Positions 2,782-17,266 of a stretch of 64,000 nucleotides of DNA are shown here, piece by piece. The notes below the pieces were generated by a model. The model saw only the letters and a program-made list of their open reading frames with translations, was not told the origin of the DNA and searched no databases. Each line of letters starts with the position of its first letter. Position 1 is the stretch's first letter. A program made the translations under genes and the position numbers. Source of the DNA: Sulfuricaulis limicola (lineage in GTDB: Bacteria; Pseudomonadota; Gammaproteobacteria; Acidiferrobacterales; Sulfurifustaceae); contig NZ_AP014879.1 in the NCBI RefSeq assembly GCF_002355735.1, positions 1 to 64,000 of the forward strand, written 5' to 3'.

Positions 2782-5279
<2,498 letters not shown>

Positions 5280-5318: not shown

Positions 5319-5702
5319 TCAGTGCAGGGTGCGCGGAATACTCAGCGTGAAAGAGGGTATTTCAGCATCGAACGCGGTGCCATCATCGGCTATCATCTGG
5401 TAACTACCCTGCATCGTGCCAACCGGCGTTTCCAGGATCGTACCGCTCGTGTACTGAAAACTCGTGCCGGGCAGGAGATAAGGTTGCTCCCCCACGACAC
5501 CCTCGCCATGGACCTCGCGTTTCTGCTCGTTGGCGTCGGTAATGATCCAGTGTCGTGTCACCAGGCGCGCCGGTACCGAGCCGGAATTGGTGATGGTGAT
5601 GGTATAAGCGAAAACATAACGGTTCTGGCCCGGCTCGGACTGGCCGGGAAGATAAGAGGTGCGCACGTCGATCTGGATCTGGTGTTTGTCGCTGGCGGTC
5701 AT
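5319..5702 (-). CDS. apaG: ApaG protein (DUF525/ApaG fold)
   Basis: This is a single-domain protein of 127 aa, the usual length of ApaG, a fibronectin type III-like fold linked genetically to Co2+ resistance and Mg2+ efflux in enterics. Recognisable features are RYVFAYTITITNSG near residues 28-41, the RHWIITDANE strand, and the glycine-rich GEGVVGEQPYLLPG. The end of the family signature, GTMQGSYQMIADDG, is also present. It lies in the same leftward block as apaH but is separated from it by a DUF2784 gene, unlike the adjacent pair in E. coli. Its biochemical role is not settled in the family. Confidence 0.95.
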   Translation of the reverse strand: MTASDKHQIQIDVRTSYLPGQSEPGQNRYVFAYTITITNSGSVPARLVTRHWIITDANEQKREVHGEGVVGEQPYLLPGTSFQYTSGTILETPVGTMQGSYQMIADDGTAFDAEIPSFTLSIPRTLH

Positions 5703-11237: not shown

Positions 11238-11261
11238 GATGCTGGCTCCTGTACGGATTGA

Positions 11262-11344
11262 GCGAGCGCCGTTTTTTTGACTGACGTTCCCTCCGAGCCT
11301 GGCCCCAGCGTCGAGCTTGGGGGTTGCAACGCTCCTCGGAGGGC
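11262..11344 (-). promoter_or_regulatory. SAH riboswitch upstream of ahcY
   Basis: Read on the minus strand, the RNA contains CCGAGGAGCGUUGCAAC (11339-11323), then CCAGGCUCGG (11302-11293), then ACGGCGCUC (11272-11264). A long P1 helix pairs CCCUCCGAG (11344-11336) with CUCGGAGGG (11297-11289). The last segment can pair with the GAGCG of the first to form the pseudoknot. These are the conserved elements of the S-adenosylhomocysteine riboswitch, an ON switch for SAH recycling genes. It lies in the metK-ahcY gap, 25 bases before ahcY. Confidence 0.92.
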
Positions 11345-13883: not shown

Positions 13884-13954
13884 AAATATAACTGCGATAT
13901 GTATAAAGTGGTAATTTCTAATTTGATTTAACCGGTTTATAGCGGATGTATCCC

Positions 13955-13983
13955 TTGACAGCAAGTATAAAATCTGATAGAGT
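13955..13983 (+). promoter_or_regulatory. Sigma-70 promoter for the IS1595 transposase
   Basis: TTGACA at 13955-13960 is a perfect -35 hexamer. It is followed by a 17-base spacer and TAGAGT at 13978-13983 as a -10. It lies 38 bases before the transposase start and is one of the few clear promoters in the window. Confidence 0.6.
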
Positions 13984-14021
13984 TTCAGTAAATCAACCAC
14001 TTACAAAAACGGCGATTTATC

Positions 14022-14906
14022 ATGAAATACACCCACAAAAACTTTGTCGAAGATTTCCCAGATGATGCGGCCTGTTTGGCCAGAATCATGGAACTCCGGT
14101 ACGGAAACGAGCCGATTTGTGACAAATGTGGGAAATCTACTCATTTCCACCCAATCACCGGTCGGCGGGCCTTTGCCTGCCAGTGGTGCGGGCATCACGT
14201 CTACCCCTGCGTTGGAACCCCGTTTGAGAAGTCCTCAACGCCCCTGACGCTCTGGTTTCATGCCATGTACCTCATGACGGCCACTCGCAACGGCGTGTCG
14301 GCCAAAGAGCTTCAGCGGCAGCTAGGCGTAACCTACAAGACCGCCTGGCGCATCGGCCATGAGATACGCAAGCTCATGGGCGAAAGAAACGAACTCAACG
14401 GGCCGCTCTCCGGCCACGTCGAAATAGACGAGACCTACATCGGCGGCAAGGCCACCGGCAAGGGTCGTCATGGTGCCTTGTCAGGCGACAACAAGACCAT
14501 CGTCATGGGCATGATTCAGCGCGGCGGCCCATTCAAGGGTCAGATCGTGCCAGACGTGAAACGGCGTACTTTGAAACCGATCATCAGAGAAAACGTCGAG
14601 TACGGCAGCACCATCAGCACCGATGAATTAAGTGCTTACAACGTGCTTCCGGTTTACGGATACCAACATGGCAAAGTTTCTCACAGGCAAAAGCAGTATG
14701 TGAACGGCCTGTTTCATGTGAACAACATAGAGAATTTCTGGAAGCACCTGAAAGGTGGCATCCGTTCCACGCACATGTCCGTGTCGCCGAAATACTTACA
14801 GAACTACATCGAGGAATTTGGTTTCCGATACAACCATCGGAAAGAACCCGGCACTATGTTTTACCGAATGCTTTCACACCTTGCTAAAAAAGAGACTGCT
14901 GTTTGA
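14022..14906 (+). CDS. IS1595 family transposase (ISXO2-like)
   Basis: This DDE-type transposase should move the surrounding insertion sequence. The 294-aa protein has an N-terminal zinc ribbon (Cys33, Cys36, Cys53, Cys56), then a helix-turn-helix region near KELQRQLGVTYKTAWRIG. The ISXO2-like catalytic core follows, with EIDETYIGGK as the first acidic motif, STDELSAYN as the second, and NNIENFWKHLKGG as the third (Asn or Glu type). The frame is intact. Its last 23 bases overlap the end of a gene on the opposite strand. Terminal inverted repeats could not be assigned with confidence. IS1595 elements are known to carry passenger genes. Confidence 0.93.
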   Translation: MKYTHKNFVEDFPDDAACLARIMELRYGNEPICDKCGKSTHFHPITGRRAFACQWCGHHVYPCVGTPFEKSSTPLTLWFHAMYLMTATRNGVSAKELQRQLGVTYKTAWRIGHEIRKLMGERNELNGPLSGHVEIDETYIGGKATGKGRHGALSGDNKTIVMGMIQRGGPFKGQIVPDVKRRTLKPIIRENVEYGSTISTDELSAYNVLPVYGYQHGKVSHRQKQYVNGLFHVNNIENFWKHLKGGIRSTHMSVSPKYLQNYIEEFGFRYNHRKEPGTMFYRMLSHLAKKETAV

Positions 14907-15747
14907 TTGTCCTATGTTCGATTACTTTTTTAACTCGGCGTTCTGTTTTGAACGAGCCTAATGTCTTTGACTGTTTAATTAAGAGATCAACAATCAACAT
15001 ATCACCTTTACCAAATCTCTCTTCTCCAGAATCTACGCGGCTTAAAAAATTCAAATCATCGATCGCAGCGGAAAAGCTGGTTTGGCCGTCATAGAACTTC
15101 CACATATTGCCTTCTTTAAAAACCGCAGATTCAATGATTAAGCCTTGTTTTATGGTGTTTTCAGAAAATAAAGATTCTGTCGGAACCGTCACAAAAGAAG
15201 ATGCTTCGTCCTTTTTTGCTTCGGCTATTTGCTTACTTCCAGAGGTAATTCTTACTTGTTCAATATCGTTCTCTAAATTCTTTTTTACAAAACGTCCTAC
15301 TGCCTCACCGGCTTTTTCATCGGTGACAATCTTCGCTACATCAGCGTGAAAATAGTTGATCGTTCCGTTGTTCGTTTCAACGATTAACCTATCGCCTTCG
15401 ATAGAAAATTTGGTAGGTGTCTCGCCACGCAGTAATTTCCAAATAGAAAAACTCTGTGAGATAAGTTCGCAAAGGTCTTTAGGGCCAGAGATACCAGAAA
15501 AAATTGTCGCGGCAATCCCGGCCGCATGAATTGAAAAATCTATCTCGAAAGAACCTTTTCCAACTCCTTGGATATTTGTTTTGATCTTGGCATTGTCGCC
15601 ATAGGCGGCACGAGCAACGATCCCCAAGAAATCTCCAAAGGCCATAATGCTGGCCCCGGCCTCGTAGGCGTCCATCTCGCCAGATTCCACCGCTGGTCCA
15701 CTGTAAATAAGTGAAAGCTGGTTTGGCTCTGGGAGTTTTATTTTCAT
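14884..15747 (-). CDS. Hypothetical protein in low-GC module next to IS1595
   Basis: I do not recognise this 287-aa protein. It starts MKIKLPEPNQLSLIYSGPAV and has a small hydrophobic patch around AAGIAATIFSGISG near residues 72-85. Charged beta-rich stretches follow, and the Lys/Arg-rich end is RRVKKVIEHRTIKQQSLF. There is no signal peptide. GC content is visibly lower than in the flanking genes, which suggests transfer. It forms a two-gene unit with a 45-aa reading frame upstream, joined by a TAATG overlap. Its 3' end overlaps the transposase gene by 23 bases, tail to tail. It may be a passenger or accessory gene; the function is unknown. Confidence 0.75.
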   Translation of the reverse strand: MKIKLPEPNQLSLIYSGPAVESGEMDAYEAGASIMAFGDFLGIVARAAYGDNAKIKTNIQGVGKGSFEIDFSIHAAGIAATIFSGISGPKDLCELISQSFSIWKLLRGETPTKFSIEGDRLIVETNNGTINYFHADVAKIVTDEKAGEAVGRFVKKNLENDIEQVRITSGSKQIAEAKKDEASSFVTVPTESLFSENTIKQGLIIESAVFKEGNMWKFYDGQTSFSAAIDDLNFLSRVDSGEERFGKGDMLIVDLLIKQSKTLGSFKTERRVKKVIEHRTIKQQSLF

Positions 15748-15884
15748 TATTTTTTTCTGACGCCAAAAACGGCATCAGACAAAAGTTGGTTGAAAGCTTC
15801 TTTATGACGAGGATTTGACCCTTTTTTAGGGACAGGCTTATTCGCCTTATTTTTCGCCACTTTTTTCGCTGGTTTCCTTTCCAT
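15747..15884 (-). CDS. Small basic protein (45 aa) coupled to the hypothetical gene
   Basis: This short frame begins at ATG 15884 and encodes a very basic N-terminal half (MERKPAKKVAKNKANKPVPK) and a more ordered tail, RHKEAFNQLLSDAVFGVRKK. Its TAA stop overlaps the ATG of the next gene (TAATG), the usual sign of translational coupling. The ribosome site is weak. A leftward terminator and a perfect small inverted repeat (GCACAA/TTGTGC, 15926-15940) lie just upstream, as expected for the head of an independent operon. The function is unknown; the coupling is the main evidence that it is real. Confidence 0.55.
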   Translation of the reverse strand: MERKPAKKVAKNKANKPVPKKGSNPRHKEAFNQLLSDAVFGVRKK

Positions 15885-15943
15885 GTAAGTAACACCATTT
15901 CAAGCTTGCTTTTTCACCGCGCCACAGCACAATAGTTGTGCCT

Positions 15944-15973
15944 GAAAAACAAAAGCCCGGCTGTAACCGGGCT
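15944..15973 (-). terminator. Rho-independent terminator (leftward)
   Basis: On the minus strand a perfect 7-bp stem, AGCCCGG and CCGGGCT (15973-15954), is followed by TTTTGTTTTTC. It would stop leftward transcription coming from the parS/protease side before the two-gene module. It sits 20 bases before the rightward tRNA gene. Confidence 0.65.
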
Positions 15974-15993
15974 GAGTTTGAAGGTTTTGGGAA

Positions 15994-16078
15994 GCGCGTG
16001 TGGTGAAAATGGTAAACACAGCTGCCTTCTAAGCAGCCGCCTGGCTAGGGTTTGTGGGTTCGAATCCCATCATGCGCA
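15994..16078 (+). tRNA. Class II tRNA with UCU anticodon (leucine-type body)
   Basis: A complete cloverleaf of 85 nt folds by hand. The acceptor is GCGCGTG with CATGCGC, and a 3-bp D stem GTG/CAC closes an 11-base loop. The anticodon stem is GCTGC/GCAGC with loop CTTCTAA. A 16-base variable arm (16038-16053) contains a CCT/AGG stem. The T arm is GTGGG-TTCGAAT-CCCAT, and the discriminator is A. The anticodon is TCT at 16028-16030, which would read the arginine codon AGA. The long variable arm, 3-bp D stem and D loop are leucine-type, not arginine-type. An automatic caller may label it tRNA-Arg(TCT). The encoded end is CCC, not CCA. Confidence 0.8.
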
Positions 16079-16263
16079 CCCAAATTTTTACAGAGTTCGG
16101 AAAGGGTTAACCTCCAAAACTAACCCAGACCAACTGCCATGTGTCAGCATGGCATTTACCGCAGCACCGGGCCGGCGTCCAAAACCGGCCCATTTTTTTT
16201 CAAACGCCGTCAACCAACCCCTTGACGCAACGTTCAAAAAATGCTTACTGAATCAAAGACTTA

Positions 16264-16279
16264 TGTTCCACGTGGAACA
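16264..16279. promoter_or_regulatory. Perfect parS site
   Basis: TGTTCCACGTGGAACA is a fully symmetric 16-base palindrome matching the bacterial parS consensus bound by ParB. It lies in the 303-base gene-free stretch between the tRNA and the M48 protease gene, about 14.7 kb from the candidate origin. Nothing else convincing was seen in that stretch apart from a weak hairpin near 16342-16361 that could end the protease transcript. Confidence 0.85.
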
Positions 16280-16381
16280 TTTGGTTGCACTATCGTGCAC
16301 ATTAGTTCTTACCCCATTGGGGTGTCAAGTCGTTTACAAATGGCGCTTGTTTTGCAAGCCCTTACTAACCCCTGTTTTTGA

Positions 16382-17266
16382 CTACTTGCCCTGTCGGGAC
16401 ACATCCGGTTTATAGCTGGCTATGTGGGATTTAATTATCGAAGAAAATCGTGATTCTACCCTGGGATTTTCAATAAATTTGTCTAACCGGCCTTCCATGG
16501 CGTTCGATACCAATTCCAGTCGTTTTCCGGAGTCCGGGTGGGTTTTGAACATCAGTGCGACCGCATCATCCTTGGGGTTAATGGAGGCGAGTGTCTGCAA
16601 TACCGAGGGCAAGCCATAAGGGTCATAGCCGGCACGGGTGGCAATTACCACCCCGGCACGGTCGGCGGCATATTCGTCTTCCTTATCCAGGCCACGCGCA
16701 TAGATCTCGGTACTGGCGCTGACGATCTTGGTGAATTCCTCTTTGCCCTTCTTCTCGGCGTAATTACTGAGGGCATCGCCGGCGAGCCCGGCGAGCGTGC
16801 CCTTGCGCATGGTCTTGAGCGCGTGTTTTTCCACCACATGCGATGCCTCATGCGCCAGCACGCCAGCCAGTTCGGCCTCGTCGCGCATGCGCAGCAGCAT
16901 GCCGCGCGTGATGAAGACGTAACCGCCCGGCGTCGCGAAGGCATTCACGCCATCGGTGTCGAGCACGGCGAAGTGCCAGGGCAGATCGGGGCGCTCGGTG
17001 TGCATCGCCACCCATTGGCCGACGCGATTCACGTAGGCCTGCAGCTGCGGGTCATTCACGGGTGGCGCCGCGCCCAGCAGGTTGGCAGCCACGCCCTTGC
17101 CGATTTCGATCTCGTCGGCCTCGGAGGGTTCCTTCAGCGGCTTGAGCTTGCCTTTGACTTCCTTGAGCTTGTCCACGTTGAGGTCGCCAAGCTTGAGCGC
17201 ATGGGCCGCGGGAGTGCACAGCACGGCCGTCAGCAACAAAACCACGGGGATGCGGATTTTCATCAA
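16382..17266 (-). CDS. M48 family metalloprotease, secreted
   Basis: This zinc metalloprotease is probably periplasmic or lipid-free in the envelope. The 294-aa protein starts with a signal peptide, MMKIRIPVVLLLTAVLCTPAAHA, of about 24 residues (shown only in outline: basic start, hydrophobic core, AHA cleavage site). The zinc motif HEASHVVEKH lies near residue 140, with the third ligand expected in DEYAADRAGV near 197. The family (LoiP/YggG-like, BepA relatives) takes part in outer-membrane protein quality control; which branch this is cannot be told here. It is followed on the same strand by no gene until the accessory patch. Confidence 0.9.
   Translation of the reverse strand: MMKIRIPVVLLLTAVLCTPAAHALKLGDLNVDKLKEVKGKLKPLKEPSEADEIEIGKGVAANLLGAAPPVNDPQLQAYVNRVGQWVAMHTERPDLPWHFAVLDTDGVNAFATPGGYVFITRGMLLRMRDEAELAGVLAHEASHVVEKHALKTMRKGTLAGLAGDALSNYAEKKGKEEFTKIVSASTEIYARGLDKEDEYAADRAGVVIATRAGYDPYGLPSVLQTLASINPKDDAVALMFKTHPDSGKRLELVSNAMEGRLDKFIENPRVESRFSSIIKSHIASYKPDVSRQGK

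What the first reader, a model, noticed from the sequence alone, without database searches (positions are those of the whole stretch)
15994..16078. Leucine-type class II tRNA body carrying a UCU (arginine) anticodon
Seen: all stems pair, the variable arm is 16 bases with its own small stem, the D stem is 3 bp with an 11-base loop, the discriminator is A, and the anticodon loop CTTCTAA gives UCU. Known: bacterial tRNA-Arg is class I; long variable arms occur in Leu, Ser, Tyr and Sec tRNAs. E. coli LeuRS does not depend on the anticodon, while ArgRS reads C35 and U36, both present here. Inference: charging identity is ambiguous. It could place leucine at AGA codons, be an ArgRS substrate of unusual shape, or be a regulatory or decayed tRNA on a mobile patch. 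AGA should be rare in a GC-rich genome, so toleration is conceivable.
Basis: partly seen in the sequence, partly recalled or inferred. Interest (0 to 1): 0.78.

Follow-up and report, generated by a model that had tools for sequence, protein, structure and literature searches.

The report
Leucine-type tRNA misreading arginine codons
A small jumping gene in this bacterium carries a phage-like transfer RNA that has every known bacterial mark for being loaded with leucine but reads a rare arginine codon, so it could put the wrong amino acid into proteins.

Summary
The tRNA at 15994-16078 is a complete class II tRNA with a UCU anticodon; every stem pairs. All bacterial leucine determinants tested are present (A73, U8-A14, A15-U48, G18G19, A20a, long variable arm). 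The main E. coli arginine determinant A20 is absent, although all host tRNA-Arg read here have it. Its closest relatives are jumbo-phage tRNA-Leu genes (CBB, phiKZ). The host keeps a normal class I tRNA-Arg(UCU) and five tRNA-Leu, so this gene is extra. It lies inside a 2,463-bp IS1595-family transposon (inverted repeats, 10-bp target duplication, empty site in congeners), beside a candidate defence gene (PDC-S42). An exact leucine-body-plus-UCU pattern is rare: two intact genes in 84,980 genomes and two types in 2.9 million viral contigs. Leucine-bodied UCC (Gly) tRNAs also occur in viral contigs. One genomic case sits in a type I cas operon beside a CreA-like guide unit, which hints at a toxin-like role. 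Most likely reading: a phage-derived, leucine-charged tRNA that inserts Leu at AGA, carried as transposon cargo. Charging, expression and benefit are not shown.

The parts
15994..16078 (+). class II tRNA gene, leucine-type body, UCU anticodon, discriminator A73, no encoded CCA (followed by CCC)
   Evidence: ARAGORN, Rfam RF00005 58.9 bits, hand-set structure with all stems paired
16028..16030 (+). anticodon TCT (UCU) in loop CTTCTAA
   Evidence: (anticodon at position 35)
16169..16200 (+). likely intrinsic terminator of the tRNA transcript (GGGCCGG-9 nt-CCGGCCC, then A and T8)
13944..16406 (.). IS1595-family transposon, 2463 bp, that carries the tRNA
   Evidence: inverted repeats at the ends, target-site duplication, empty site in four congeners
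13944..13967 (+). left inverted repeat GGATGTATCCCTTGACAGCAAGTA
16383..16406 (-). right inverted repeat (reads GGATGTGTCCCGACAGGGCAAGTA on the - strand)
13934..13943 (.). target-site duplication, left copy GGTTTATAGC
   Evidence: single copy in the empty site of G008 (L216)
16407..16416 (.). target-site duplication, right copy GGTTTATAGC
14022..14906 (+). IS1595-family transposase
   Evidence: PF12762 E 2.4e-37, PF12760 E 8.3e-10; NF033547 E 4e-62
14884..15747 (-). cargo gene, 287 aa, PADLOC defence candidate PDC-S42 / NCBIfam LAPAL family; function untested
   Evidence: PDC-S42 E 3.4e-52, NF053583 E 1.1e-62; AlphaFold model unusable, mean pLDDT 46.7
15747..15884 (-). small basic ORF, 45 aa, overlapping the start of the cargo gene
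   Evidence: translation; no family search was run on this frame
16264..16279 (.). perfect parS-like palindrome TGTTCCACGTGGAACA inside the transposon

Best explanation
The gene is a phage-derived tRNA-Leu body whose anticodon has become UCU, carried as cargo of an IS1595-family transposon. Shown: intact class II structure, all known bacterial leucine determinants, no A20 for ArgRS, nearest relatives among jumbo-phage tRNA-Leu, transposon boundaries and empty site, presence of a normal class I tRNA-Arg(UCU) in the host. Inferred: host LeuRS, which does not read the anticodon in E. coli, charges it with leucine after 3' trimming and CCA addition; it then pairs with AGA (and perhaps AGG) and puts leucine at a fraction of these rare codons, in competition with the normal tRNA-Arg(UCU). 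Because AGA is rare in the host the cost is small, which would let the transposon keep it. What the element gains (a toxin-like or stress role, support of the adjacent defence candidate, or nothing) is open.
For: Structure and determinants: with the determinant list of PMC9976931. All five host tRNA-Leu share the same determinant states, and all four host tRNA-Arg read have A20; this tRNA has U20, A20a. Nearest sequences are tRNA-Leu of phage CBB and phiKZ-like phages, 75-76% identity. Transposon. No match by DNA in 8 congeners or the other relatives searched. Host has a normal tRNA-Arg(UCU) and five tRNA-Leu and two PolyA_pol-family genes, the family that holds CCA-adding enzyme. AGA 22 of 16,211 codons in the window's long ORFs. 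Other intact cases with the same body and anticodon: L167, L168, L171; Leu-bodied UCC cases: L384, L390, L392, L393, L395.
Against: No aminoacylation, expression or proteome data. No consensus sigma-70 promoter was found just upstream. CCA is not encoded, unlike all other host tRNAs. Host ArgRS could differ from E. coli ArgRS, and C35 and U36, both arginine determinants, are present. A conserved arginine in the transposon's own cargo is encoded by AGA. No relative of the transposon examined carries a tRNA, so the tRNA could be a passive passenger.
Confidence: 0.55

Rival explanations
1. Passive passenger: an intact tRNA captured from a phage by the transposon, weakly or not expressed, with no effect.
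For: No promoter consensus upstream; CCA not encoded; only one copy of the element in the genome; relatives of the transposon carry other cargo and no tRNA.
Against: All stems and tertiary-contact bases are intact; a plausible terminator follows; the same body and anticodon recur in three unrelated loci.
Confidence: 0.3
2. An ArgRS substrate of unusual shape that simply adds capacity to read AGA as arginine.
For: C35, U36 and A73 fit arginine determinants; AGA is a larger share of Arg codons in the transposon's two main genes (3 of 19 and 2 of 10) than in the window's other ORFs.
Against: A20, the strongest E. coli ArgRS determinant, is missing while all four host tRNA-Arg read have it; the host already has a class I tRNA-Arg(UCU); class II body.
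Confidence: 0.1
3. Toxin-like RNA: a missense tRNA used by mobile or defence elements to harm or arrest the cell under defined conditions.
For: A same-type tRNA (L168) lies between cas8 and cas7, downstream of a unit with two degenerate CRISPR repeats and a spacer whose nucleotides 1-5 and 7-10 match a site beside a TATTAT box upstream, the layout described for CreTA (PMC8501985). Here the tRNA sits beside a defence candidate, PDC-S42.
Against: No CreA-like unit or other controller was identified at the window locus; host CRISPR content was not tested; the described archaeal CreT toxins are short RNAs that sequester a tRNA, not tRNAs.
Confidence: 0.15
4. Decoy or spare tRNA that protects UCU decoding against tRNA-targeting toxins, anticodon nucleases or CreT-type sequestration.
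For: Phages in the same survey carry very many UCU tRNAs; L171 carries both a class I and a Leu-bodied UCU tRNA.
Against: A leucylated decoy would mistranslate; no nuclease partner identified; PDC-S42 homologues elsewhere have no tRNA beside them.
Confidence: 0.08

Closest known systems
nev-tRNAs of nematodes (class II tRNA-Gly(CCC), tRNA-Ile(UAU))
   Same: long variable arm, non-leucine anticodon; reported as misacylated with leucine in vitro (PMC4300185)
   Different: those are nematode-specific; this is a single bacterial gene on a transposon, of phage ancestry, UCU anticodon, charging untested
allo-tRNAs (Mukai et al. 2017, reviewed in PMC7609411)
   Same: bacterial class II tRNAs whose anticodon does not match the body; one pseudogene overlaps a transposon-related ORF
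   Different: allo-tRNAs have a 12-bp acceptor domain (8/4 or 9/3) and serine-type identity elements; this is a normal 7/5 tRNA with leucine determinants
jumbo-phage tRNA-Leu (Pectobacterium phage CBB, Pseudomonas phage phiKZ)
   Same: nearest sequences; D arm of CBB GTGAAATTGGTAAACAC differs by one base; same type of variable arm
   Different: CBB has anticodon UAA and encodes CCA; this one has UCU and does not
IS1595-family transposons with passenger genes
   Same: transposase domains, inverted repeats, short target duplication, cargo gene on the opposite strand as in L234, L235, L251
   Different: no other examined member carries a tRNA

Membership tests
tRNA-Leu (bacterial identity) | A73 | tested here: met
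   determinant list
tRNA-Leu (bacterial identity) | A15-U48, U8-A14, G18G19, A20a, long variable arm | tested here: met
tRNA-Leu (bacterial identity) | leucine anticodon with A35 | tested here: not met
   anticodon UCU
tRNA-Leu (bacterial identity) | actual leucylation | not testable with these tools
   needs biochemistry
tRNA-Arg(UCU) | class I body with short variable loop | tested here: not met
   16-nt variable region
tRNA-Arg(UCU) | A20 | tested here: not met
   U20; all four host tRNA-Arg read have A20
tRNA-Arg(UCU) | C35 and U36 | tested here: met
allo-tRNA | 12-bp acceptor domain, 8/4 or 9/3 | tested here: not met
   7-bp acceptor and 5-bp T stem; definition in PMC7609411
nev-tRNA | class II body with non-leucine anticodon | tested here: met
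nev-tRNA | nematode gene | tested here: not met
   bacterial genome, single 2.86-Mb contig with a bacterial tRNA set
tRNA pseudogene or fragment | broken stems or missing parts | tested here: not met
   all stems paired; only CCA is not encoded
IS1595-family transposon | DDE_Tnp_IS1595 transposase | tested here: met
IS1595-family transposon | terminal inverted repeats and target duplication | tested here: met
   duplication reads as 10 bp GGTTTATAGC (or 8 bp TTTATAGC)
CreTA module (window locus) | CreA guide with degenerate CRISPR repeats beside the RNA toxin | not tested
   host CRISPR repeats were not searched; such a unit was seen only at L168

The most novel reading that the evidence does not exclude
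Leucine-bodied tRNAs with UCU or UCC anticodons form a scattered class of missense RNAs carried by phages, transposons and CRISPR loci and used as conditional toxins; the L168 copy would be a tRNA-type CreT repressed by Cascade, and the window copy its transposon-borne counterpart.
Probability: 0.13. Interest if true: 0.9.

Novelty: new variant of a known kind. Interest (0 to 1): 0.62.

Why it matters
If it is charged with leucine, this is a naturally occurring bacterial tRNA that breaks the genetic code at arginine codons and moves between genomes on a transposon. That would extend the nematode nev-tRNA idea to bacteria and mobile elements and make tolerated or programmed mistranslation testable with one gene. 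The recurrence beside a CRISPR guide-like unit in another genome suggests a function rather than an accident.

Tried and rejected
Plasmid search with the tRNA: no match. Search of 96 relatives by DNA: only the own genome. Structure of the cargo protein: a two-sequence alignment gave an unusable model, so no fold search was made. Search for tRNAs in relatives of the transposon and of the cargo gene: none. Terminal-repeat pattern TATCCCYTTGACRNCAAGTA: its hits held no transposase relative, and the pattern does not match the window's own repeat because of one extra base, so it says nothing about the family. Literature searches on class II tRNAs with foreign anticodons found nev-tRNAs and allo-tRNAs but nothing matching this. 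A fixed AGA=Leu code for the element was considered and disfavoured. Sequencing error in the anticodon loop cannot be excluded from one assembly, but the same loop recurs in three other loci. The gene found beside the UCC cases L384 and L395 was not found elsewhere. No second Leu-bodied UCU tRNA was found in 395 other genomes of the L168 phylum. In a wrong frame was submitted for the small ORF; the right frame is.

Full report
The observation. ARAGORN calls tRNA-Arg(tct) at 15994-16080 and the Rfam tRNA model scores 15994-16078 at 58.9 bits. Laid out by hand, acceptor, D, anticodon and T stems all pair (7/7, 3/3, 5/5, 5/5), the variable region is 16 nt, and the discriminator is A. Shuffled windows never give the pattern. 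The gene ends ACCC: CCA is not encoded, unlike the other host tRNA genes.

Identity. The reviewed bacterial leucine determinants are A73, the tertiary contacts around A15-U48, G18G19 and A20a, and the large variable region; arginine is set mainly by A20, C35, U/G36 and A/G73 (PMC9976931). The window tRNA has every leucine determinant, in the same states as the host's five tRNA-Leu, and C2-G71, listed there as an antideterminant against SerRS in E. coli tRNA-Leu. It has U20 where all four host tRNA-Arg that were read have A20. The anticodon gives C35 and U36. By sequence the closest genes are tRNA-Leu of the jumbo phages CBB and phiKZ and their relatives, 75-76% identical. The most economical history is a phage tRNA-Leu, perhaps UAA, with two anticodon changes; that step is inference.

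The host. The genome is a single 2.86-Mb contig with 43 tRNA matches, including a normal class I tRNA-Arg(UCU) at 1937897-1937970 and tRNA-Leu with UAA, UAG, CAA, GAG and CAG. The extra tRNA is therefore not needed for decoding. AGA makes up 22 of 16,211 codons of long ORFs in the window (the ORFs were chosen mechanically). Two PolyA_pol-family genes are present, the family that includes CCA-adding enzyme.

The vehicle. In four congeners the ttcA-like gene and the M48 peptidase gene are adjacent; in this genome 13944-16406 is inserted between them. The insert has 24-nt terminal inverted repeats (GGATGTATCCCTTGACAGCAAGTA and GGATGTGTCCCGACAGGGCAAGTA), is flanked by GGTTTATAGC on both sides, and the empty site in the nearest congener has that sequence once. 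It encodes an IS1595-family transposase, on the opposite strand a 287-aa protein of PADLOC family PDC-S42, a candidate defence protein that NCBIfam calls LAPAL, a 45-aa basic ORF, and the tRNA. Relatives of the transposase in plasmids and viral contigs have the same type of repeats and an opposite-strand cargo gene, in one case a protein that looks like a trypsin-type protease by eye, but no tRNA. The association of the tRNA with this transposon is therefore seen once.

Same-type tRNAs elsewhere. An exact pattern for a leucine-type D arm plus UCU loop hit 4 places in 84,980 genomes and 5 in 2.9 million viral contigs. Intact class II genes are L167, L168 and L171, plus a pair (L140, L172) with a poor anticodon stem; the others are a fragment, chance, or short-variable-loop tRNAs. 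As a control the same body was sought with two other anticodons in viral contigs. UGU gave one imperfect case; UCC (glycine) gave five distinct class II genes, one of them with two mismatched pairs. So leucine bodies with foreign anticodons recur, and UCU is not unique.

A hint of function. In L168 the tRNA lies between cas8 and the next cas gene, with cas6 and cas5 nearby (the middle gene, called cas7 here, had no Pfam match and is named from its position). The contig has a CRISPR array with repeat GTCTTAATCGAACCAGAGTGGAATTGAAAC (35 exact matches to its core). Upstream of the tRNA are two degenerate copies around a spacer-like stretch starting GCAGTCATGG; nucleotides 1-5 and 7-10 recur at 3545 after CCA and next to TATTAT. 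That is the layout described for CreA guides of CreTA modules, whose known archaeal toxins act by sequestering rare tRNAs including tRNA-Arg(UCU) (PMC8501985). Here the downstream RNA is itself a tRNA with a UCU anticodon. Repeat similarity alone is modest (local score 12; 500 shuffles mean 7.3, maximum 13); the combination of repeat ends, spacer seed match and position is what makes it notable. Two UCC cases, L384 and L395, are followed within about 30 bp by homologous small genes (45% identity), another sign that such tRNAs are not random debris.

Verdict. Structure, leucine determinants, phage ancestry and transposon location are well supported. Leucine charging is the best prediction but untested. 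Whether the window gene is expressed, and whether it harms, helps or does nothing, is open. I found no published description of this type in bacteria in the library searched; the nearest known kinds are nev-tRNAs and allo-tRNAs, and it is a member of neither by their definitions.

A separate observation came up during the survey: a family of phage tRNA-Arg genes with an altered order of arms. It is described under things noticed in passing because it does not bear on the window gene.

Noticed in passing
viral contigs, e.g. L054 (pattern 5495-5532), L057, L095, L114, L117, L125, L287, L315: Phage tRNA-like genes with rearranged arms: acceptor, TA, 3-nt strand, anticodon hairpin, 3-nt strand complementary to the first, then a D-loop-like TAA(N)TGGA, then T arm and acceptor. 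The 3-bp stem covaries (24 of 48 fully paired at one register against mean 7.4, maximum 16 in 1000 partner shuffles; CGG/CCG, CTC/GAG, CCC/GGG, CTT/AAG, CAC/GTG). In a scan not restricted by anticodon all 80 complete genes have arginine anticodons (UCU 67, CCU 10, CCG 2, ACG 1) and keep GGA like G18G19A20. ARAGORN misses nearly all; the Rfam tRNA model scores those tried at about 24-33 bits. I know of no description; one literature search found none.
   Followed up: partly
L168 3513-3880 (MNJR01000130.1): CreA-like unit with two degenerate CRISPR repeats and a seed-matching site, upstream of a Leu-bodied UCU tRNA inside a type I cas operon.
   Followed up: partly
window 16264-16279: A perfect parS-like 16-mer TGTTCCACGTGGAACA lies inside the transposon; the host's other parS-like sites at 2782-2797 and 2820-2835 each have a mismatch to the consensus. 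A transposon that carries a ParB-type site, inserted about 13 kb from the native ones, is odd.
   Followed up: partly
L384 600-1195 and L395 989-1488: Leu-bodied tRNAs with UCC anticodon followed about 30 bp downstream by homologous small genes (45% identity, E 1e-25; coiled-coil plus possible winged helix); no relatives found in phages, plasmids or 398 genomes.
   Followed up: partly
L249 2802-3650: A homologue of the PDC-S42/LAPAL cargo protein sits as a reversed single gene between what look like the portal and terminase genes of a phage contig.
   Followed up: no
L251 2664-4740: A related IS1595-type transposon in a viral contig carries a protease-like cargo gene whose C-terminus (NPDHREDFNNLLDAAVKGKQ) resembles the end of the window's 45-aa ORF (NPRHKEAFNQLLSDAVFGVRKK).
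   Followed up: no
window 11257-11343: SAH riboswitch upstream of the ahcY-like gene on the - strand, 63.9 bits; ordinary.
   Followed up: no
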